Of a DNA stretch of 64,000 nt, positions 9,994 through 19,355 are shown one piece after another. The stretch comes from Actinopolyspora halophila DSM 43834 (GTDB lineage Bacteria; Actinomycetota; Actinomycetes; Mycobacteriales; Pseudonocardiaceae): assembly GCF_000371785.1 (NCBI RefSeq), contig NZ_AQUI01000002.1, positions 2,335,276 through 2,399,275 of the forward strand, given 5' to 3'. The translations under genes were made by a program, and so were the position numbers. The notes under the pieces are model-generated. The model was not told where the DNA came from, searched no databases, and saw only the letters and a list, made by a program, of their open reading frames with translations. Position 1 is the first letter of the stretch, and each line of letters begins with the position of its first letter.

Positions 9994-10090
9994 GCGGGGC
10001 TTCCGCTCGGGGTGCCGCAAGCACCCGTCCGGCGGAACCTCTCCGTTGCCCCGTGAGCGACTGCCCAGCCCCCGGGCAGCGGTTTGCTCA
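9991..10090. repeat. Partial copy of the intergenic hairpin repeat; convergent terminators
   Basis: The spacer begins at the stop codon of the J-domain gene and ends at the stop of the convergent hexosaminidase gene. It contains two hairpins, GGGTGC-cgcaa-GCACCC (10010-10026) and CTGCCC...GGGCAG (10061-10079), that can end both transcripts. The stretch from 10029 (CGGCGGAACCTCTCCGTTG, then CCCCGTGAGCG) matches the core of four other spacers in this window, so I treat it as a short copy of that family. Confidence 0.5.
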
Positions 10091-11683
10091 GCGCGGTTTC
10101 CCGGGGACACCGGGACGGGTTTGCCAGGGGTGCGGGCCGTCCAGTGGACGGAACTCCACGCCGAGGGCTTCCAGCCTGGGCAGGTGGTACGTCGCGAGCC
10201 TCCGGTGAAACTCCGCGAAGTTCCGCGCGCTCGCGGTCAGCCAGGCGACCTCGGCGAGGGCGCACAGCCTGGGGAAGGCCGCGTAATCCACTCTGGACGC
10301 ACTGTCCAGGTGCTCCGTCCACAACTGTGCCTGAGTGCCCAGCACACGGTGTGCGCTCCCGCTCGGCATGTCCGGGGGGACGGGGTCGTAGGCGTGGACG
10401 TCCTCCAGGGTGCGGAGATATCCGACGGGGACCGGTTCCCCGGGGTGATCCGCCTGCCTGTGGTCCAGATAGACCTCCTGCTCGGGGCACATGATCGTGT
10501 CGTGTCCGGACGCGACCGCCCGCTTGCCGCCTTCCTCCCCGCGCCACGAGGCGACGATGCCCCCGGGGGGAAGCTCCTGCCCCGCGTCGAGGATCTCGTC
10601 CCAGCCGAGTGCCCTCCTGCCGCGATCCCGCAGGTGTTCGGCCATCCTGCGCAGGAACCAACCGTGCAGGGCGGCCGGCTCGGACAGCCCCAGCTCACGA
10701 CTGCGCTCCCGGCAACGCCGGTCGTTCTCCCACTCGGTAGCGGGAACCTCGTCGCCTCCGACGCAGACGACGGGGGAGGGAAAGACGGAGACAACGTGGT
10801 CGAACACCCGACGGAAGAAGTCCACGGTGCTCTCCTCCGCGTTGAGTACGTGTTCGCTGACCCCCCAACCCGTCCAGACATCCAGTCGGCGATGCGGGGC
10901 GGTGCCCAGTCCGGGGTAGGACGCGATGGCCGCCTGGCAGTGGCCCGGCACATCGACCTCGGGGACCACGGTGATGTGGTGTTCGGCGGCGTAGGAGACG
11001 ATCTCGATCAGATCCTCGCTCGTGTAGTAGCCACCGTGTGGACGGGCCAGGTATTCGGCTGTCGGTCCGGCCCCGAGCTGGGAACCCGATCGCCAGGCTC
11101 CGACCTCGGTCAGCCGGGGCAGCCCGGGAACCTCGATGCGCCACCCCTGGTCGTCGGTGAGGTGCAGGTGCAGCACGTTGAGCTTGTGCGCGGCCAACAG
11201 CTCGACGAAGCGGAGTACCTCGCGTTTGGGCAGGAAATGTCGTGCGAGGTCGAGGTGGCATCCACGCCACGAGAAGCGTGGGCGGTCTTCGAGCTCTCCG
11301 CACGGAAGGGGCCACGGTCCGGTACGAACTACCGATTCGCGCCACGCGCCCGCCCCGAGAAGCTGTCTGAGCGTCTGGGCCGCGTAGTGCGCTCCGGCGG
11401 GATCGTGCGCTCGTACCGAAACTCCTTCGGGGGTGATGCTCATCCGATAGCTTTCGGGGCCGTGGATCTCCCCGGGGGTGATGCGGAAGGTGATGTCCCC
11501 GTCCCCGGTCTCCCGCAGCGGGAGTCCGGTCGCCCCGCCCACCGTCTCCCTGAACCAGCGGACGGTGTCCTCCTCGCCCGCGATCGTGGTGTCGGCGTCC
11601 AGGACGAGCGTTTCCGGTCGGGGACGCACGCTCATCGGCCGGGGGACGACCGCGTGCAGCGGACAGGAGACTTCGTGGTTCAT
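10088..11683 (-). CDS. Beta-N-acetylhexosaminidase, GH20 (DasD-like)
   Basis: A 531-residue family 20 glycoside hydrolase that removes terminal N-acetylglucosamine (or N-acetylgalactosamine) by substrate-assisted catalysis. The GH20b N-terminal domain occupies about 1-130. The TIM barrel starts at FSWRGCHLDLARHFLP and carries the catalytic Asp-Glu pair D311-E312 in VGGDEVPATEW. There is no signal peptide, so it should act in the cytoplasm on imported chitobiose-type sugars. Its ATG overlaps the TGA of the upstream permease gene (ATGA), making it the last gene of the transporter operon. The same arrangement (dasABC followed by the GH20 gene dasD) is known in Streptomyces. Confidence 0.93.
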   Translation of the reverse strand: MNHEVSCPLHAVVPRPMSVRPRPETLVLDADTTIAGEEDTVRWFRETVGGATGLPLRETGDGDITFRITPGEIHGPESYRMSITPEGVSVRAHDPAGAHYAAQTLRQLLGAGAWRESVVRTGPWPLPCGELEDRPRFSWRGCHLDLARHFLPKREVLRFVELLAAHKLNVLHLHLTDDQGWRIEVPGLPRLTEVGAWRSGSQLGAGPTAEYLARPHGGYYTSEDLIEIVSYAAEHHITVVPEVDVPGHCQAAIASYPGLGTAPHRRLDVWTGWGVSEHVLNAEESTVDFFRRVFDHVVSVFPSPVVCVGGDEVPATEWENDRRCRERSRELGLSEPAALHGWFLRRMAEHLRDRGRRALGWDEILDAGQELPPGGIVASWRGEEGGKRAVASGHDTIMCPEQEVYLDHRQADHPGEPVPVGYLRTLEDVHAYDPVPPDMPSGSAHRVLGTQAQLWTEHLDSASRVDYAAFPRLCALAEVAWLTASARNFAEFHRRLATYHLPRLEALGVEFRPLDGPHPWQTRPGVPGKPR

Positions 11684-12576
11684 GTCTTCACCGCTCCCGC
11701 TATTCCGGACACCAGGTGGCGCTGCACCAGTACGAAGAAGATCAGCACCGGGATCGTCATGAGTGTGGAACCGGCCATGATCGCTCCCCAGTCATTGCCC
11801 GTCGGTTTGAAGAAGACGAGGATCGCCAGCGGAAGCGTCTGGTTCTCCGTCGCCGAGATTATGAACGTTTTGGCGAACAGGAAGTCGTTCCACGCGTGGA
11901 TGAACGAGAGCACGCTCATGGCGACCAGACCGGGTGCTACCAGTGGGAAGAGCACCTGCCAGGTGAATCGGAATCTGCCGGCCCCGTCCAGAGTGGCCGC
12001 TTCCTCGAGCTCGTCGGGCACGGCGGCGACGAAACCGCGCAGCATCCAGATGGCGAAGGGCAGGCTGAAAGCCAGGTGCACCAGTACCAGCGAGCCCAGG
12101 TGGTTCAGTCCGAACCACGGCGCTACCGAGCCGACCGAACGCATGAGGAAGAAGAGCGGTATCGTCAGTGCCTCGACGGGCACCATCTGGGCGACGAGAA
12201 TCATCACCAGCAGTACCGTTCTCCCGCGGAATCGGAACTTGGTGAGTGCCACCGCGGCCAGGAAAGATATCAACAGCGACACCAGGACCACGATCCCGGC
12301 CACGACGACGCTGTTGAGAAAGTACCGTCCGAAATCGTCCACGGTGAGCACGCGGCGGAAGTTTTCCAGCGTTGGCGAGAGGGTCCACGGGCGCGGATCG
12401 GTGGACTGTATCTGTCCGGTCGGTTTGAACGCCGTGAGCAGCATCCAGTACAGCGGGAAGGCGACCACGGCGGCGACGAGGACCGCCACGATCTCCGCCA
12501 GGGTCCTGGCCGGACGCTTGGCCGACCTTCTTCGTCCCGTTCCGTGTCGTGTGGAAGTGCGAACCGCGGTCGTCAT
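11680..12576 (-). CDS. Sugar ABC transporter permease (MalG/DasC type)
   Basis: A 298-residue inner-membrane permease with six predicted helices. The EAA loop for contact with the ATPase is visible in PDELEEAATLDGAGRF, and the N-terminus is short and basic (TRHGTGRRRSAKR), as in MalG-type subunits. The ATG at 12576 overlaps the upstream permease stop by four bases (ATGA), and its own stop overlaps the hexosaminidase start. No ATP-binding subunit is encoded in the operon; Streptomyces sugar importers of this type use the shared ATPase MsiK, so an unlinked MsiK is expected. Predicted substrate: N-acetylglucosamine oligomers, from context. Confidence 0.93.
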   Translation of the reverse strand: MTTAVRTSTRHGTGRRRSAKRPARTLAEIVAVLVAAVVAFPLYWMLLTAFKPTGQIQSTDPRPWTLSPTLENFRRVLTVDDFGRYFLNSVVVAGIVVLVSLLISFLAAVALTKFRFRGRTVLLVMILVAQMVPVEALTIPLFFLMRSVGSVAPWFGLNHLGSLVLVHLAFSLPFAIWMLRGFVAAVPDELEEAATLDGAGRFRFTWQVLFPLVAPGLVAMSVLSFIHAWNDFLFAKTFIISATENQTLPLAILVFFKPTGNDWGAIMAGSTLMTIPVLIFFVLVQRHLVSGIAGAVKT

Positions 12577-13559
12577 GTGCTTTCCCCGAATCCTCGTTGC
12601 ACGCGCAGGTAGATCACCGTGATCAGCAACAGCAGTGCGGTCATCACCACACCGATGGCCGAACCGAGGCCGTAACTGGATCCCGCGAACGCCTCCTGGT
12701 AGGCGTACACGTTGAGCACCAGATTCCGTCCCGCTATGCCACCTCCGTCGGTCATCACGTAGATCTGGGTGAAGATCTTGAAGTCCCAGATGATCGACTG
12801 GATGGTCGCGATGACCAGCAGCGGACGCAGCATCGGCATCAGCACGCTGCGGGTGGTTCGCCAGGTCGAAGCGCCGTCCAGCGCGGCGGCCTCGATCATT
12901 TCGCCCGGTATGGCCTTGATGCCCGCGTACATCGTGACCATGACGAAGGGGAAGGAGCACCAGATCACCTCACCCGCGACCAGGGCGAAGGCGACGAAGC
13001 GGTCGTAGGTCCAGGAGAACCCCTCCATGCTCTCCAGACCGATTCCGCTGAGGATCTCGTTGACGAGGCCGAAATCCTGGTCGAACAGGAACAGCCACAC
13101 CGTGGACCCGGCCACGGCAGGCGTGGCCCACGCACCCAGAGCGGCCAGGAACAGCAGGGTGCGGGGCAGCCAGCGCACCCTGCTCGCCAACACTGCCAGC
13201 GCGATCCCCACCGTAAGACTGCCCAGCACGCAGACGGCGGCGAAACCGCAGGTGTTGAGCAGCACCATCCAGAATCGTGCGTCGCCGAGCAGGTCCGCGT
13301 AGTTGCCGAGTCCGCGGAACTCCAGCGGGGCACCCCCGCTGGCCTGCGCCTGCCCGTACTCGTACAGCGAGAGCTGCACGAGTTGATAGAGCGGGTAGGC
13401 CATCACCGCGAGCAGCACGATGCCGGTCGGGGCGAGGTACAGCGCGGCCGTGCGTCCGCTCGCTCGTGGTCCGCGCGGGCGCGGTCGACGGCGCTTCCCG
13501 GACCGGAGGGGAGGTAATCGCCCTGCCGTGCCCGGCTCGGTGCTGGATTGGACGGTCAT
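12573..13559 (-). CDS. Sugar ABC transporter permease (MalF/DasB type)
   Basis: A 328-residue permease with six to seven transmembrane helices after an arginine-rich N-terminus, and the EAA motif IPGEMIEAAALDGASTW. I start it at the ATG at 13559. An in-frame TTG at 13595 has the better ribosome binding site (GGAGAAG, 9-base spacing) and would add 12 residues, so the start is uncertain. It forms the heterodimeric channel with the next gene, which it overlaps by four bases, and follows the binding-protein gene by 85 bases. Confidence 0.92.
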   Translation of the reverse strand: MTVQSSTEPGTAGRLPPLRSGKRRRPRPRGPRASGRTAALYLAPTGIVLLAVMAYPLYQLVQLSLYEYGQAQASGGAPLEFRGLGNYADLLGDARFWMVLLNTCGFAAVCVLGSLTVGIALAVLASRVRWLPRTLLFLAALGAWATPAVAGSTVWLFLFDQDFGLVNEILSGIGLESMEGFSWTYDRFVAFALVAGEVIWCSFPFVMVTMYAGIKAIPGEMIEAAALDGASTWRTTRSVLMPMLRPLLVIATIQSIIWDFKIFTQIYVMTDGGGIAGRNLVLNVYAYQEAFAGSSYGLGSAIGVVMTALLLLITVIYLRVQRGFGEST

Positions 13560-13644
13560 CTGGTGCGACCTGTTCTCCGGGGGCGGGTGTGCCAACCGTT
13601 GGTTCTTCTCCGGGGATGCTCGTTCGGAGTCCTGCTACGACCGG

Positions 13645-14932: not shown

Positions 14933-14968
14933 TTGCGTTCAGTGCAACGTTTGTTCTGTTCTGTGCAA
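14933..14968. promoter_or_regulatory. Paired IclR-type palindromic operator in the transporter leader
   Basis: TTGCGTTCAGTGCAA (14933-14947) is a near-perfect palindrome lying 10 bases upstream of the binding-protein start codon. A weaker copy, TTCTGTTCTGTGCAA (14954-14968, 12/15 identical), starts exactly 21 bases, about two helical turns, further out. A site with 14/15 identity and the same 21-base pairing lies in front of the deaminase gene beside the IclR regulator. Being downstream of the predicted -10, it would act as a road-block repressor site. Confidence 0.65.
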
Positions 14969-14976
14969 TAAAGCTG

Positions 14977-15005
14977 ATGCTAAGTGGACGGTCGAACCGA
15001 AACAA
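14977..15005 (-). promoter_or_regulatory. Promoter of the DasABC-like operon
   Basis: Read on the minus strand, TTGTTT (15005-15000) and TAGCAT (14982-14977) are separated by 17 bases and fit a -35/-10 pair. The -35 abuts the dre site and the transcript would run into the paired palindromes. Confidence 0.5.
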
Positions 15006-15016
15006 GGTCTAGACCG
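15005..15016. promoter_or_regulatory. DasR-responsive element (dre)-like site
   Basis: The core GGTCTAGACC (15006-15015) is a perfect palindrome that matches the centre of the DasR consensus ACTGGTCTAGACCAGT known from Streptomyces. It touches the -35 box of the transporter operon. DasR is a GntR-family repressor released by glucosamine-6-phosphate. No dasR gene is in the window. Confidence 0.6.
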
Positions 15017-15222
15017 GTAAGGGTGTCGGAGTGTTCGTGCTCGCGGCTCGGTGGTCCGGCAGGCGGTTCGTTACGAGTCCACATCGAGCTTTTACGGTCG
15101 GATCGTCGGCCGAGTCGTCCGTTCTCGGCGCGGCAAGTCCCGAACGACGCCCGAGCCGTCGGCGCCGCCGCGGAAGGTTCCGCTCAGCAACCCCCATGCC
15201 AATCCGAGGGGGAGAACATCAG

Positions 15223-16356
15223 TCAGCTCCGGAGAGCCAACACGACCGCTCCGGGGGCCTCAACGCTCTCGGCGACGGGACCGAGCCGTCCCGTGCTCCG
15301 GTCACGTGGCAACCGGGTGACGGTCCCGGAGTTCTGATTGGACACGTACAACCAGCTCTGGCCCGCGTCCAGTGTGCAGTGACGTGGCCAGGCGCCACCG
15401 GTGGAGACGGTCTCGCTCAGCCGGAGTCGAGCACCTCGGGCTCCGATGGTGAACACGGCCACGGTGTCGTCCCCGCGGTTGGTGACATAGCAGAACCGGC
15501 CCGCGTGGTCGACCACGATCTCGGCCGGGACGTTCTCGCCGTCGGCACCCGGGGGGCGGGTGTCGAGCGTGGAGACGACGGTGAACTCTCCGGAGGTGGC
15601 GTGCCATTCCAACACCGTCACGGTGCTGGCGAGCTCGTTGACCAGATAGGCGTACCGCCCCTGGGGGTGGAATTCCACGTGCCTGGGTCCGTTGCCGTTT
15701 TGGACCGACAATCGTTGGTTGAGCCGCAGCTTTCCGGTCACTGTGTCCAGGCGGTAGGTGTGGACGGCATCGGCACCGAGGTCCACGGTGATGATCCACC
15801 GCCCGCTCGGATCGGTGATCACCTGGTGTGCTTTGGGCGCGCGTCGCGTCGCGGAGTGCTGGACCAGATCGGTGGATTCGCCGATGGCCCCGTTCCCCTC
15901 CAGGCGATGAACCGCGACCGTTCCGTCGGTGTAATTGGCGGTCAGCAGGAAACGTCCCGTCGGGTGAACACTCAGGTGAGTGGGACCTGCGCCTTCGCTG
16001 GACCGCGTGTTCAGTATCCGGGGATTCCACGGATCGTCGAGGTCGAGTGCGGTGACCGACCCGTTCGGGACCAGCTCGTTGGTGGTGTACAGGACGCGGC
16101 GTTGCGGGGAGAAGGCCAACCACGACGCGTCCGGAACCCCGTCGATCGCGCTCCTGGGGCGGAGTGCTCCGGAAGTGGTGTCGTGTGCGACGACCTGGAA
16201 GCCTTTTCCGGGCGGGTCGGTCCAGCTGAAACTGCCGAGATAGACGGGGCGGTGGTGGCCGGCAGGTCGGGCGCTGCTCGTGCCCGTCAGGGCCGTGGTG
16301 GCTCCCATCGCGCCGAGTGCGGTGAGGAAAGCGCGACGATTCGGGGTGGTGGCCAA
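15223..16356 (-). CDS. Exported beta-propeller lactonase-family protein
   Basis: A 377-residue protein of the lactonase / YVTN beta-propeller family (6-phosphogluconolactonase-like fold). It begins with a twin-arginine signal, NRRAFLTALGAMGATTALTG, and a probable cleavage after SSA, so it should act outside the membrane. Seven-blade repeats are visible (GPTHLSVHPTGRFLLTANY; PRHVEFHPQGRYAYLVNEL). The TTG start at 16356 is supported by GAGGAG five bases upstream. A dre-like site lies 108 bases upstream, which links it to the adjacent amino-sugar transporter operon. The true substrate is unknown; many members of this family have no proven lactonase activity. Confidence 0.85.
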   Translation of the reverse strand: MATTPNRRAFLTALGAMGATTALTGTSSARPAGHHRPVYLGSFSWTDPPGKGFQVVAHDTTSGALRPRSAIDGVPDASWLAFSPQRRVLYTTNELVPNGSVTALDLDDPWNPRILNTRSSEGAGPTHLSVHPTGRFLLTANYTDGTVAVHRLEGNGAIGESTDLVQHSATRRAPKAHQVITDPSGRWIITVDLGADAVHTYRLDTVTGKLRLNQRLSVQNGNGPRHVEFHPQGRYAYLVNELASTVTVLEWHATSGEFTVVSTLDTRPPGADGENVPAEIVVDHAGRFCYVTNRGDDTVAVFTIGARGARLRLSETVSTGGAWPRHCTLDAGQSWLYVSNQNSGTVTRLPRDRSTGRLGPVAESVEAPGAVVLALRS

Positions 16357-16463
16357 CTGGTCTCCTCGAAGTCGTTCGTGCGGACCGGGGAACGGAGCGG
16401 TTGCGAATCGGGGGTGGTTCGTCGGTCCGGCGGTTTCGGCTAGTGTGCCGTACTTTCGTCGAA

Positions 16464-16475
16464 TGGACTAGACCA
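16464..16475. promoter_or_regulatory. Second DasR-responsive element (dre)-like site
   Basis: TGGACTAGACCA matches TGGTCTAGACCA at 11 of 12 positions and lies upstream of the lactonase gene in the spacer 16357-16696. I found no other dre-like core in the noncoding part of the window, so both copies flank the same gene group. Confidence 0.5.
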
Positions 16476-16561
16476 AATTTTCGGTGAATTTCCGTCCGCG
16501 GTGCTGCGCCCGTGACGGAATCGGGGCAGGAACACACCCGATTGTTCGAATCTTTGCTCCT

Positions 16562-16604
16562 CCGAGAGGGCCGAATGGTCTATCGGCTCAACCGAGAGGG
16601 CCGA
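16562..16604. repeat. 13-bp direct repeat in the lactonase-deaminase spacer
   Basis: CCGAGAGGGCCGA occurs at 16562-16574 and again at 16592-16604, offset by 30 bases. It sits in the noncoding region behind the deaminase stop and upstream of the lactonase. Nothing else supports a gene between 16357 and 16696. Confidence 0.6.
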
Positions 16605-16696
16605 TTCGAGGAGAGGGGGCACAACGAGAGCCGAGGGGGATCAGTGGGAGCGAGCACTCCGAAAGACGGAACTTCTCCGGTGGTCGAAAACCCCCG

Positions 16697-18001
16697 TCAG
16701 AAGAAGGTGCGCACGAGATCGACCACCTCGTCTCCGTCGACGAGCGGTATCAGTGGCCACTTGTCGAACACCGTGCACGGATGTGAAAGCCCGCACTCGA
16801 ACCAGTCGCCGACCTCCGTAGCGGAGTCCGCTGGTATCCGGACGAAAGCGTGCTGGTCGGCCAGTTCCGTCATCCGTGCCCCCTTCAACGGAAGGCTTCC
16901 GTCGTCGGTGCGCACCCGCTGCGGCTGCGGGAGGTCCTGGTCGAAGGAGGCATCGCGCCTTCCGAGGGTCAGCAGCACCAGATCCGGTTCGGGGCGGGAG
17001 ACGACCTGGGCCAGTATGCGCAGCGCGGGGCGGAAGGGCTCTTCGGGGCCCGCCAGCCGGTGGGCACGTCCGAAGGGCGACATGGTGCGGTACAAACCGT
17101 GGTCGTGGGTTATGTAGGATCCGCTGCGCAGTATGGGGACGACGGGTCTGTCCAGTCCCCACGGCGTGGTGAGTGCTTCGGCCACCTGATCGAAGTAGGA
17201 ACTTCCTCCCGCTGTCACGAGGATCTCGTCGACCTCGTCGAACAGCCCAGCCCGCGCGACACCGGTGACCACTTCGCGTATCCCGGAGAGGTAGTCGTCC
17301 ACCGCGATCAGGTCGGTGTCGCTGAGATCGTGTGATATCGCGCCCTCGTAGCCGCCGACCCCGGCCAGACGCAGGTTCGGGCTCGCGTGCACCGCCCGTG
17401 CGACCTCCAGCGCCTCCGCGGTGCTCCTGGCCCCCGTGCGACCGCCGCGCCGGCCGAGTTCGACCAGCACGTCCACGGGGCGGCGACCCCCCGTCGCGGA
17501 CAGTGCCCGCTCCATCAGTTCCACGTTCCTCGTGGAGTCGACCCAGCAGGAGAAGAGGAATTCGGGGTCCCGTTCCAACTCGGAGGCGAGCCAGGAGAGC
17601 CCGTTCGGGTCGACGAGTTGGTTCGCCAGCAGGACGCGGCTCGTCCCGAACGCTCGGTAAACCCGCAGCTGACTGATGTTGGCCGCTGTGATCCCCCAGG
17701 CGCCGTGATCGAGTTGGCGCTGGAAGAGCTGGGGAGCCATGGTGGTCTTGCCGTGCGGGGAGAGCAGCACGCCGTGACGCGAGCACCAGTCGGCCATCGT
17801 CGCCAGGTTGTGCTCCAGCGCGGGGCGCTCCAAAAGCAGCAGTGGGCCCACGAACCCGTTGTCCCGGAGGTTCGGTCGTGTCCGGAGGAACTGGTCGACC
17901 GTGCTGCCGAAGGCCTCGGAGGGCATTCCCTTGAAGCGCCAGTCGATTCGTTCGTCCCGCAGACCGCGTACTGCCGATCGGTCCATAGTCGCCGCCCGCA
18001 C
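16697..18001 (-). CDS. PLP-dependent D-amino acid deaminase/aldolase (D-threonine aldolase / D-serine dehydratase fold)
   Basis: A 434-residue fold-type III PLP enzyme with an N-terminal alanine-racemase-like barrel and a C-terminal D-serine-dehydratase-like domain. The PLP lysine lies in LLSPHGKTTMAPQLF, and the metal-binding end carries CGLSHPCTVFDKW. Relatives deaminate D-serine or D-threonine or cleave beta-hydroxy-D-amino acids; the precise substrate is open. GTG at 18001 follows GGAGG by four bases; a downstream ATG at 17986 is an alternative without a good site. Divergent from the IclR gene, and RidA, which hydrolyses the enamine products of such deaminases, is encoded next to that regulator, supporting a deaminase role. 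Confidence 0.8.
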   Translation of the reverse strand: MRAATMDRSAVRGLRDERIDWRFKGMPSEAFGSTVDQFLRTRPNLRDNGFVGPLLLLERPALEHNLATMADWCSRHGVLLSPHGKTTMAPQLFQRQLDHGAWGITAANISQLRVYRAFGTSRVLLANQLVDPNGLSWLASELERDPEFLFSCWVDSTRNVELMERALSATGGRRPVDVLVELGRRGGRTGARSTAEALEVARAVHASPNLRLAGVGGYEGAISHDLSDTDLIAVDDYLSGIREVVTGVARAGLFDEVDEILVTAGGSSYFDQVAEALTTPWGLDRPVVPILRSGSYITHDHGLYRTMSPFGRAHRLAGPEEPFRPALRILAQVVSRPEPDLVLLTLGRRDASFDQDLPQPQRVRTDDGSLPLKGARMTELADQHAFVRIPADSATEVGDWFECGLSHPCTVFDKWPLIPLVDGDEVVDLVRTFF

Positions 18002-18012
18002 CGAACCTCCAG

Positions 18013-18048
18013 TTGCATTGAACGCAATGGATATTGCATATGTTGGTA
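18013..18048. promoter_or_regulatory. Paired IclR-type operator between the deaminase and iclR genes
   Basis: TTGCATTGAACGCAA (18013-18027) is the reverse complement of TTGCGTTCAATGCAA and differs from the transporter site at one position. A half-site TTGCAT begins 21 bases further on (18034), reproducing the spacing seen at 14933/14954. The strong site lies 11 bases upstream of the GTG used for the deaminase; at the transporter it is 10 bases. The likely ligand is the IclR protein encoded next door. Confidence 0.65.
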
Positions 18049-18190: not shown

Positions 18191-18940
18191 ATGAGTCAGA
18201 GCCTGCAGCGTGGACTCGCGTTGCTCAACACCTTGGCGGAAGGACCGCGAAACCTCGATCAGCTGGCGGAAGCCGTGGGAGTGCACAAGTCCACCGCGAT
18301 GCGACTGTTGCGCTCCCTCGAGTCCGCGAGGTTCGTGAATCGTCCCGACGCGCATCGCTACAGGCTGGGCAGCGCGCTGTTCGAACTGGCCAACTGCGCC
18401 CTGGACGGGATCGACGTACGTGCCGCCGCCCGCGGGAAGCTGCGTGAACTGGGTGAACGTACGGGCCACACGGTGCACTTGGCGGTACGGGAAGAGGACA
18501 GTGCCGTCTACGTGGACAAAGTGGACAGCAGCCGCTCGGTGCGGATGTACTCCAGGACAGGAGCGCGAGCTCCACTGCACTGCACCGCGGTCGGCAAGGT
18601 GCTGTTGTCGGGTATGCCCGAACAGGACAGGCGGGAACTGGCCACGAGGCTGGACTACCCCGCGTTGACCGAACGCACCGTCACCGGCGCGGAGTCACTC
18701 CTGGCGGAAGTGGACCGGGTGCTGGCCGAGGGGTGTGCTTTCGACCGCGGGGAGCACGAGGACTTCGTGCACTGCGTCGCGGCCGGGGTGCGCGACCCCC
18801 GTGGAGCGGTCGTCGCCGCGGTGTCCGTCTCCGTTCCGAAAGTGCTGCTCGACTTCGACGAGCTGCTCGGCTGGAGCGGGGAGCTGAAAGAAGCGTGCGC
18901 GCACATCTCGGCCGAACTCGGCTGGCAACCGCACGGATGA
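18191..18940 (+). CDS. IclR-family transcriptional regulator
   Basis: A 249-residue regulator with an N-terminal winged helix-turn-helix (SLQRGLALLNTLAEGPRNLDQLAEAVGVHKSTAMRLLRSLE) and the C-terminal IclR effector domain (LHCTAVGKVLLSGMPE; GCAFDRGEHEDFVHCVAAGVRD). IclR proteins usually bind 15-bp palindromes as dimers of dimers and respond to small catabolic metabolites. The ATG at 18191 is placed so the HTH begins normally and is preceded by a GAGG-type site; upstream in-frame starts at 18092, 18128 and 18137 are less likely. It probably controls the divergent deaminase, itself and the transporter operon through the paired palindromes. Confidence 0.9.
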   Translation: MSQSLQRGLALLNTLAEGPRNLDQLAEAVGVHKSTAMRLLRSLESARFVNRPDAHRYRLGSALFELANCALDGIDVRAAARGKLRELGERTGHTVHLAVREEDSAVYVDKVDSSRSVRMYSRTGARAPLHCTAVGKVLLSGMPEQDRRELATRLDYPALTERTVTGAESLLAEVDRVLAEGCAFDRGEHEDFVHCVAAGVRDPRGAVVAAVSVSVPKVLLDFDELLGWSGELKEACAHISAELGWQPHG

Positions 18941-18962: not shown

Positions 18963-19355
18963 ATGTCGACAAGCGTGATAACCACTCCGAACGCTCCGAG
19001 TCCTCCGGCCGGTGTGCCGCTGTCCCAGGCGGTGCGCAAGGGGAACCTCGTGCAGGTCTCCGGACAGACCGGGGTCGATCCCGCCACCGGAAAGCCCGTT
19101 TCCGATTCCGTGGCCGATCAGACGGAACAGGCCCTGCGCAATGTGTTCGCCATTCTCGACGAGGCGGGGGCAAGCCCCGAGGACGTTCTCATGCTGCGGG
19201 TGTATCTCACCGACGTGGCGCATTTCGCGGAGATGAACGAAACCTACGCCGGAGTGGTCGGGGAACCGTATCCGGCGCGGACCACCGTCTACGTCGGGCT
19301 GCCGCCCGCCCTGCTGGTCGAGATCGACGCGCTGGCGGTGCTCGGGCAGGAGTAG
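18963..19355 (+). CDS. RidA family reactive-intermediate deaminase
   Basis: A 130-residue RidA/YjgF protein, which hydrolyses reactive enamine/imine intermediates such as 2-aminoacrylate released by PLP dehydratases. Conserved elements: an N-terminal proline-rich strand, VQVSGQTGVDP, RNVFAILDEAGASPEDVLMLRVYLTDVAHFAEMN and the C-terminal PARTTVYVGLPPALLVEIDALAV, in which the arginine of PARTTV binds the substrate carboxylate. The ATG at 18963 has GGAAGAGC just upstream. It follows the IclR gene by 22 bases and is likely cotranscribed with it, fitting a role in detoxifying products of the divergently encoded deaminase. Confidence 0.92.
   Translation: MSTSVITTPNAPSPPAGVPLSQAVRKGNLVQVSGQTGVDPATGKPVSDSVADQTEQALRNVFAILDEAGASPEDVLMLRVYLTDVAHFAEMNETYAGVVGEPYPARTTVYVGLPPALLVEIDALAVLGQE

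What the first reader, a model, noticed from the sequence alone, without database searches (positions are those of the whole stretch)
14933..18048. Same paired 15-bp palindrome, same 21-bp phasing, at two distant promoters beside an iclR gene
TTGCGTTCAGTGCAA (14933) and TTGCATTGAACGCAA (18013) are reverse-complement relatives with one mismatch. Each lies 10-11 bases upstream of a start codon and each has a second, weaker copy or half-site exactly 21 bases further out. Two helical turns fits the dimer-of-dimers binding of IclR proteins. This predicts a regulon linking D-amino acid deamination and RidA with chito-oligosaccharide uptake, suggesting that muropeptide- or chitin-derived mixed substrates are the signal.
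Basis: partly seen in the sequence, partly recalled or inferred. Interest (0 to 1): 0.75.

Follow-up and report, generated by a model that had tools for sequence, protein, structure and literature searches.

The report
Operon switch for oxidised-chitin sugar use
Two matching double DNA sites, very probably bound by a neighbouring IclR-type regulator, sit in front of an importer operon and an enzyme operon that together look like an actinobacterial route for eating the acid sugars left when chitin is cut oxidatively.

Summary
TTGC-N7-GCAA with a second copy 21 bp out lies just upstream of the Shine-Dalgarno of a sugar-binding-protein gene (14933) and a D-serine-deaminase-like gene (18013). Such a pair occurs in 2 of 1000 shuffled windows, two pairs in none. 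All 22 genomes searched have the pair at the deaminase-like promoter; across 49 promoters 21 bp is by far the best spacing. Of 29 further loci drawn by the enzyme, 15 of 16 with a deacylase next door have it, 0 of 13 without. IclR as binder is well supported, though untested. In relatives the locus adds a D-aminoacylase-like deacylase, a gluconate-type permease, a KDG-type kinase and, in Tsukamurella, a KDPG aldolase, pointing to N-acetylglucosaminate, made by chitin LPMOs. This parallels the gammaproteobacterial ong pathway, with another regulator, importer and deacylase branch. A DasR-type site precedes the lactonase. The effector domain is nearest KdgR, so KDG or a precursor may induce. Enzyme specificities are inferred; the deacylase lacks the published OngB signature.

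The parts
14933..14947 (.). operator of the importer operon, start-proximal full copy (TTGC-N7-GCAA)
   Evidence: strict copy in all 11 importer promoters, which were chosen for it
14954..14968 (.). operator of the importer operon, distal copy at 21 bp (one half degenerate)
   Evidence: 6 of 8 half-site letters; its outer half kept in 11 of 11 importer promoters
18013..18027 (.). operator of the OngC-like operon, start-proximal full copy
   Evidence: upstream of the gene in 18 of 18 loci that hold it
18034..18048 (.). operator of the OngC-like operon, distal copy at 21 bp, towards iclR
   Evidence: 6 of 8 half-site letters; half nearest the full copy kept in 37 of 37 promoters
16697..18001 (-). 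OngC-like PLP enzyme (D-serine dehydratase-like, likely glucosaminate to KDG); start GTG 18001 is my choice
   Evidence: PF14031, PF01168; best structure hit D-serine deaminase 3gwq; 32.8% to Pseudoalteromonas OngC
18191..18940 (+). IclR-family regulator (start set by conserved MSQSL; longest ORF starts 18092)
   Evidence: PF09339, PF01614; effector domain nearest KdgR 1ysp
18963..19355 (+). RidA-family protein (OngD-like)
   Evidence: PF01042; 34% to Pseudoalteromonas OngD over 105 aa
13645..14922 (-). sugar-type ABC solute-binding lipoprotein
   Evidence: PF13416, PF01547; ligand not settled
12573..13595 (-). ABC permease A
   Evidence: PF00528
11680..12582 (-). ABC permease B (start estimated; scanned as the longer ORF 11680-12960)
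   Evidence: PF00528; conserved from this start in relatives
10088..11683 (-). GH20 beta-N-acetylhexosaminidase (OngA-like)
   Evidence: PF00728; 3rcn E 1.1e-165; 32.7% to Pseudoalteromonas OngA over 349 aa
15223..16356 (-). 7-bladed lactonase with a Tat-like start (RRAFLTALGA, by eye)
   Evidence: PF10282
16464..16475 (.). DasR/dre-like site TGGACTAGACCA before the lactonase
   Evidence: 1 of 4 such places in the genome; kept in 14 of 15 lactonase loci
15006..15015 (.). dre-like core GGTCTAGACC upstream of the importer operators
   Evidence: kept in L020, L024, L025, not found in L021-L023 or L027

Best explanation
The two elements are operators of the neighbouring IclR-family protein, each a pair of 15-bp imperfect palindromes 21 bp (two helical turns) apart. 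A tetramer (dimer of dimers) would sit on one face of the DNA, next to the Shine-Dalgarno, and block (a) the ABC importer-GH20 operon, (b) the OngC-like gene and (c) probably the divergent iclR-ridA genes. The regulon takes up and breaks down N-acetylglucosaminate (GlcNAc1A) and short chitin oligomers ending in it, as made by AA10 LPMOs: an exported lactonase opens the lactone, the ABC system imports oligomers, GH20 cuts them, a D-aminoacylase-like enzyme (unlinked in this genome) removes acetate, the OngC-like enzyme turns glucosaminate into KDG with RidA helping at the enamine/imine stage, and a kinase and an aldolase yield pyruvate and glyceraldehyde-3-phosphate. KDG or an acid-sugar precursor relieves repression; a DasR-type site adds chitin control at the lactonase. 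Shown: the sites, their spacing and conservation, gene content and homologies. Inferred: IclR binding, repression rather than activation, the effector, and the substrate of every enzyme and of the importer.
For: The 21-bp offset scores 6.0 of 8 half-site letters on average at 37 OngC-type and at 11 importer promoters; the next best offset scores 3.4 and 4.0. All 22 genomes searched have the pair at the OngC-like promoter (45 places in all against 13 for the reversed control, places matched). Of 29 further loci drawn by the OngC-like protein, 15 of 16 with the deacylase beside it have the pair and 0 of 13 without it; an IclR is adjacent in those 15. In A. mortivallis the unlinked deacylase gene has its own pair. 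A Tsukamurella locus has the pair, an Arthrobacter locus a full copy plus a GCAA half 21 bp out. Recognition-helix region GVHKSTAxRLL is shared by these IclRs with small changes; effector domain nearest KdgR, 1ysp, E 5e-33. NdgR, a Streptomyces IclR protein, has a 15-bp imperfect palindrome (PMC4340878, passages). Chemistry: deacylase, gluconate-type permease, KDG-type kinase in relatives' loci, KDPG aldolase in the Tsukamurella locus. The own genome has the deacylase (81% to L027's), one AA10 LPMO and a KDPG aldolase with PfkB and SGL genes. The published ong pathway has the same enzyme set by homology. The other three TGGNCTAGNCCA places in this genome sit at a ptsI-like gene and two GH18 genes.
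Against: No binding or expression data. The deacylase lacks the published OngB signature: Thr at the Ser292 position, another insertion loop, GQDG where OngB has GNCG. The published OngC also deaminates D-serine and D-threonine, and in the OngC tree the Klebsiella/Pantoea homologues beside amino-acid ABC genes lie nearer than the gammaproteobacterial ong OngC (midpoint root, long branches). In the window's own genome the deacylase is unlinked and no pair with up to 4 of 16 mismatches lies in the 20 kb around it; the best PfkB match to the relatives' kinase is only 35%. The solute-binding protein's nearest solved relatives bind acarbose/maltose-type sugars, a chitin-oligosaccharide binder ranks 13th of 19. 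No AA10 LPMO in 3 of 22 genomes. In both Streptacidiphilus genomes the nearest IclR relative is unlinked. 22 of the 45 pair places in 22 genomes are at neither the OngC-like nor the deacylase gene.
Confidence: 0.72

Rival explanations
1. One reading: the regulon joins D-amino-acid deamination to chito-oligosaccharide uptake, and the signal is muropeptide- or chitin-derived mixed substrate.
For: The best structural relative of the enzyme is named D-serine deaminase; one Klebsiella and one Pantoea plasmid locus place a 44% homologue with IclR, RidA and amino-acid ABC genes; the deacylase resembles D-aminoacylases more than OngB.
Against: In the actinobacterial loci the partners are a gluconate-type permease, a KDG-type kinase and, once, a KDPG aldolase, which D-serine or D-alanine would not need. 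Among the eight cluster proteins scanned no amino-acid transporter, racemase or muropeptide enzyme was recognised. The Klebsiella and Pantoea stretches hold no TTGC-N7-GCAA.
Confidence: 0.1
2. The sites belong to another DNA-binding protein (LacI- or GntR-type), not to the neighbouring IclR.
For: Binding was not tested; in the two Streptacidiphilus genomes no IclR relative is next to the OngC-like gene.
Against: IclR is adjacent in 15 of 15 pair-bearing loci drawn by the enzyme, not by IclR. The unlinked Streptacidiphilus IclR genes have a single TTGC-N7-GCAA in front of themselves. A 15-bp imperfect palindrome fits an IclR protein.
Confidence: 0.07
3. The regulon is as described but the substrate is another amino-sugar acid or free glucosaminate from glucose-oxidising microbes, not LPMO-cut chitin.
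For: The deacylase is not the published OngB type; 3 of 22 genomes lack an AA10 LPMO; the importer's ligand is unsettled.
Against: GH20 hexosaminidase and importer share the operator; DasR-type site before the lactonase, the other three such places at ptsI-like and GH18 genes.
Confidence: 0.14
4. The palindrome acts in the RNA leader, as a hairpin next to the Shine-Dalgarno.
For: It lies just upstream of the ribosome-binding site in both operons.
Against: Only 4-bp arms; the second copy keeps 21-bp phasing across promoters, with different halves kept in the two operons, which a hairpin would not need. RNA folding was not computed.
Confidence: 0.02

Closest known systems
ong cluster, oxidative chitin pathway of Pseudoalteromonas prydzensis (PMC9537276; abstract, passages and sections 13 and 17 seen)
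   Same: GH20, D-aminoacylase-like deacetylase, D-amino-acid-deaminase-like OngC, RidA and KDG kinase all have homologues in the window or in relatives' loci.
   Different: IclR instead of a MurR/RpiR repressor; ABC importer and GntP instead of TonB receptors and SSS symporter; a lactonase; deacylase of another branch; actinobacterial. The paper reports complete pathways in Gammaproteobacteria and one betaproteobacterium only.
OngB GlcNAc1A deacetylase family (PMC12017989; abstract, sections 7, 9, 10 and passages seen)
   Same: Amidohydrolase with D-aminoacylase-like sequence, next to an OngC-like gene.
   Different: Thr for Ser292, other insertion loop, GQDG for GNCG.
KdgR and NdgR (IclR family)
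   Same: Effector domain nearest KdgR (1ysp); NdgR has a 15-bp imperfect palindromic motif.
   Different: Score below the KdgR equivalog cut-off (174.9 against 275); the NdgR motif letters differ.
IclR beside chitinase clusters with a predicted glucosaminate route in Natrarchaeobius (PMC12343721, passages)
   Same: IclR and a RutC-family protein near chitin genes with a predicted glucosaminate step.
   Different: Archaeal, via glucosaminate-6-phosphate ammonia lyase, prediction only; no operator described in the passages seen.
DasR regulon (dre site; consensus recalled)
   Same: TGGACTAGACCA before the lactonase; other copies in this genome at ptsI-like and GH18 genes.
   Different: DasR itself was not searched here; the paired TTGC-N7-GCAA site is another element.

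Membership tests
IclR-family regulator | HTH_IclR and IclR_C domains | tested here: met
   PF09339 1.6e-11 and PF01614 7.5e-45, both above cut-off
IclR-family regulator | binds a palindromic operator of about 15 bp near its own gene | not testable with these tools
   site present and conserved; binding needs the bench
KdgR equivalog | curated NCBIfam score | tested here: not met
   174.9 bits against cut-off 275
ong oxidative chitin pathway | OngA GH20, OngC and OngD homologues in one cluster | tested here: met
   32.7%, 32.8% and 34.3% to Pseudoalteromonas CF6-2 proteins
ong oxidative chitin pathway | OngB with Ser292/Gln298-type substrate site | tested here: not met
   Thr at the Ser292 position, loop with Gln298 not alignable; homologue unlinked in this genome
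ong oxidative chitin pathway | KDG kinase in the cluster | tested here: inconclusive
   in the locus in L027, L036, L102 and 15 of 15 pair-bearing loci; not in the window; own genome 35% match at C2:956435 beside a KDPG aldolase
ong oxidative chitin pathway | MurR/RpiR regulator OngR and SSS symporter OngIT | tested here: not met
   no OngR or OngIT hit in the window; IclR and ABC genes instead
ong oxidative chitin pathway | AA10 LPMO in the genome | tested here: met
   G000:C2:242892-243392, E 5.7e-52; 19 of 22 genomes
ong oxidative chitin pathway | growth on GlcNAc1A and enzyme activity | not testable with these tools
   bench test
DasR regulon | dre-like site upstream of the gene | tested here: met
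   one of four TGGNCTAGNCCA places in the genome; consensus recalled
DasR regulon | DasR gene in this genome and binding to the site | not tested
   no DasR query was run
D-amino-acid / muropeptide catabolic operon | amino-acid transporter, racemase or muropeptide enzyme with the deaminase | tested here: not met
   eight cluster proteins scanned; such partners seen in one Klebsiella and one Pantoea plasmid locus

The most novel reading that the evidence does not exclude
Soil and halophilic actinobacteria carry their own oxidative-chitin pathway, assembled separately from the gammaproteobacterial one (other deacylase branch, other importer), under a KDG-sensing IclR repressor whose paired operator with exact 21-bp phasing has been kept across Actinopolysporaceae/Pseudonocardiaceae, Streptomycetaceae, Mycobacteriales and Micrococcales, while DasR-type sites add the hydrolytic-chitin signal at the exported lactonase.
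Probability: 0.55. Interest if true: 0.7.

Novelty: new variant of a known kind. Interest (0 to 1): 0.55.

Why it matters
Streptomyces and kin are major soil chitin degraders with chitin-cutting LPMOs (abstract start of PMC9820598), yet in the papers I saw the fate of the acid ends that LPMOs make is described only for Gammaproteobacteria and one betaproteobacterium. If true, this gives a gene set, a regulator and an operator that can be tested in ordinary laboratory Streptomyces, and a deeply conserved case of helical phasing in IclR-type operators.

Tried and rejected
Muropeptide/D-amino-acid signal: rejected as first choice on gene content, kept as a rival. Filing it as a member of the ong family: rejected, because regulator, transporter and deacylase signature are not met. 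Other TTGC-N7-GCAA hits in the loci (L025 13007, L026 173, L029 13255, L030 15027, L031 9362 and 9393, L032 15004, L033 15634, L035 15002, L042 4497) were not counted as operators: no clear partner at 21 bp, possibly chance or another regulator. An amidohydrolase near the lactonase in Saccharopolyspora was checked as a possible sugar oxidase; it is not one. Residue mapping of the deacylase through PDB alignments failed, since 9KB1 was not among the printed alignments; Pseudoalteromonas and Vibrio proteins were used instead.

Papers: no paper held all of chitin oxidative + glucosaminate + deaminase or IclR + D-aminoacylase + RidA. GlcNAc1A alone: 8 papers, 7 listed, none with an actinobacterial pathway in its title or the start of its abstract. 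Searches were listings too. So 'not described for actinobacteria' rests on these searches of an open-access library and on the passages and sections named under Closest known systems.

Rows dropped before counts: the 49 promoters (37 OngC-type, 11 importer, 1 deacylase) were chosen for a strict proximal copy, so only the distal copy is a fair test. Left out: L114 (deacylase present, no strict site, no relaxed pair), the S. soli importer promoter (CTGCGGACAGTGCAA, one mismatch), the own and A. biskrensis deacylase promoters (degenerate), the IclR-only loci L037 and L039-L042, the second copies of the same OngC loci (L103, L105-L109), and Tsukamurella and Arthrobacter (found later). The importer-type sites of G013, G014 and G016 were not fetched. 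Many of the 37 are close relatives, so counts are not independent events. In one search, 9 of the 13 loci without deacylase and 7 of the 15 with it were used, and L114 was labelled ongIclR although no IclR was seen in it. One search drew 394 genomes of the class, scored at most 4 candidates per genome, and I fetched 30 of the 140 genomes with a match.


Full report
What is there. The window lies in a 5.35-Mb genome close to Actinopolyspora biskrensis (IclR 97% identical). On the minus strand lie a GH20 hexosaminidase, two ABC permeases, a sugar-type solute-binding protein, a 7-bladed lactonase with a Tat-like start (by eye), and a D-serine-dehydratase-like PLP enzyme; on the plus strand follow an IclR regulator and a RidA protein. 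The 15-mers at 14933 and 18013 sit 10 and 11 bases before the start codons of the solute-binding protein and the PLP enzyme, next to the Shine-Dalgarno. Each has a second copy exactly 21 bp further out.

Is it chance? The single palindrome is weak: 79 of 1000 dinucleotide shuffles of the window hold two or more. The 21-bp pair is not: 2 of 1000 shuffles hold one and none hold two. Genome-wide there are 19 strict single sites (93 for the reversed control). The strict OngC-type pair TTGC-N7-GCAA-N6-TTGC has two places in this genome, one of them 18013; the importer-type pair has one, 14933.

Conservation. The IclR query brought 23 loci. All 18 of them that also hold the PLP-enzyme gene (L020-L036 and the broken S. 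spinosa locus L038) have the strict site upstream of it. Because these loci were drawn by IclR, independent draws matter more. The pair pattern occurs in 22 of 22 genomes, at 45 places against 13 for the reversed control. One place in each genome is the PLP-enzyme promoter, including two Streptacidiphilus genomes and Peterkaempfera; one more is the deacylase of A. mortivallis; the other 22 were not explained. In 394 genomes of the class, 140 have the PLP enzyme at E 1e-60 or better, and 30 loci were fetched, one being our own. Of the other 29, 16 have the deacylase beside it and 15 of these have the pair; 13 have no deacylase within the 1.5-kb flank and no site. In 15 of those 15 an IclR lies beyond the kinase. 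An offset scan over 49 promoters chosen for a strict proximal copy gives 21 bp as best offset, with 6.0 of 8 letters; the next offsets reach 3.4 (37 OngC-type promoters) and 4.0 (11 importer promoters). The surviving half of the distal copy depends on the operon: GCAA in 37 of 37, TTGC in 11 of 11. A Tsukamurella locus has the pair, and an Arthrobacter locus a full copy with a GCAA half 21 bp out.

Who binds it. The site follows the IclR gene. In the two Streptacidiphilus genomes the IclR relative lies elsewhere and has a single TTGC-N7-GCAA in front of its own gene, while the PLP-enzyme promoter keeps the pair. In A. mortivallis the deacylase gene, elsewhere on the chromosome, has its own pair directly upstream. 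The recognition-helix region GVHKSTAxRLL is shared by these IclRs with small changes and is not found in 9 paralogues of the own genome, though one (L157) is close. NdgR, an IclR protein of Streptomyces, has a 15-bp imperfect palindromic motif (PMC4340878, passages). Binding itself is untested.

What it controls. In relatives the PLP enzyme is followed by a D-aminoacylase-like amidohydrolase (PF07969): in 15 of the 18 loci, one of them broken. A GntP-type permease lies in 6 of the 18. A PfkB kinase, whose best structure hit is 2-keto-3-deoxygluconate kinase (E 6.8e-38), lies in L027, L036, L102 and in 15 of 15 pair-bearing loci. The Tsukamurella locus is annotated RidA, IclR, sugar kinase and, divergently, alanine racemase, D-aminoacylase, KDPG aldolase, gluconate:H+ symporter. 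This set makes sense for N-acyl-glucosaminate going through KDG and KDPG, not for D-serine or D-alanine. It is also the enzyme set of the ong pathway, where OngB deacetylates GlcNAc1A, OngC makes KDG, KdgK phosphorylates it, the RidA protein OngD is needed for growth, and a GH20 releases GlcNAc1A (PMC9537276). A Pseudoalteromonas plasmid record with that gene order allowed a direct comparison: the window's GH20, PLP enzyme and RidA match its proteins at 33-34% identity, and relatives' deacylase and kinase match too, more weakly.

Where it differs. The regulator is IclR instead of MurR/RpiR; transport is ABC plus GntP; there is a lactonase; and the deacylase is another branch: Thr in place of Ser292, another loop, GQDG in place of GNCG, whose Cys I recall to be the metal ligand. 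By the published residues it is not an OngB, and its substrate is inferred. In the OngC tree the actinobacterial proteins group together, and the Klebsiella/Pantoea homologues with amino-acid ABC genes lie nearer to them than the ong-type OngC does (midpoint root and long branches, so weak). The solute-binding protein's nearest solved relatives bind other sugars; a chitin-oligosaccharide binder ranks 13th of 19. These are the main points against my reading.

Link to chitin. TGGNCTAGNCCA, which I recall as the DasR/dre core, occurs at four places in the genome: before a ptsI-like gene, at two GH18 genes and before this lactonase. The last is kept in 14 of 15 lactonase loci. An AA10 LPMO is present in 19 of 22 genomes, the window's included, where it lies 31 kb from the unlinked deacylase. 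A Streptomyces LPMO makes C1-oxidised lactone and aldonic-acid ends from chitin (PMC9820598, passages). The own genome also has a KDPG aldolase beside a PfkB kinase and an SGL lactonase.

How it probably works. Both operators lie between promoter and ribosome-binding site, or overlap the promoter, so a bound IclR tetramer would act as a block; the 21-bp phasing puts two dimers on one face of the DNA. The effector domain is nearest KdgR, so KDG, the product of the OngC-like enzyme, or an acid-sugar precursor is the likely inducer. Promoter positions were read by eye and are inference.

Limits.

Noticed in passing
window 16464-16475 and 15006-15015: DasR-type sites before the lactonase and upstream of the importer operators; the three other TGGNCTAGNCCA places in the genome are at a ptsI-like gene and two GH18 genes.
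   Followed up: yes
L165:5595-12868 (Tsukamurella plasmid record): One locus holds RidA, IclR, sugar kinase, OngC-like enzyme, D-aminoacylase, KDPG aldolase and gluconate symporter, with the paired site at L165:7896-7931.
   Followed up: yes
L140:4126-10131 and L166:2156-8131: Pantoea and Klebsiella plasmids carry an OngC homologue with IclR, RidA and amino-acid ABC genes, without TTGC-N7-GCAA: possibly a D-amino-acid sister system.
   Followed up: partly
G000:C2:2978574-2978598 and counterparts in G001, G006, G009: A different recurring element, TTGCCA-N3-TGGCAATAAAGTTTGC-like, turns up in several of the genomes.
   Followed up: no
L030:15027, L032:15004, L033:15634, L035:15002: TTGCATTGC-type palindromes near an M20 peptidase/MFS pair (genes identified in L030 only) in four Saccharopolyspora species; another target or another regulator.
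   Followed up: no
L038:8327-9902 (Saccharopolyspora spinosa): The deacylase and OngC-like genes appear broken while iclR, ridA and the paired site remain.
   Followed up: no
L037: A metagenomic actinomycete contig has a 50% IclR relative next to an ABC permease but no OngC-like gene and no strict site.
   Followed up: no
L039:9980, L040:9923, L041:9927: A second conserved IclR group in Streptacidiphilus and Peterkaempfera has a single TTGC-N7-GCAA upstream of itself; in Peterkaempfera it coexists with the IclR of the OngC locus.
   Followed up: partly
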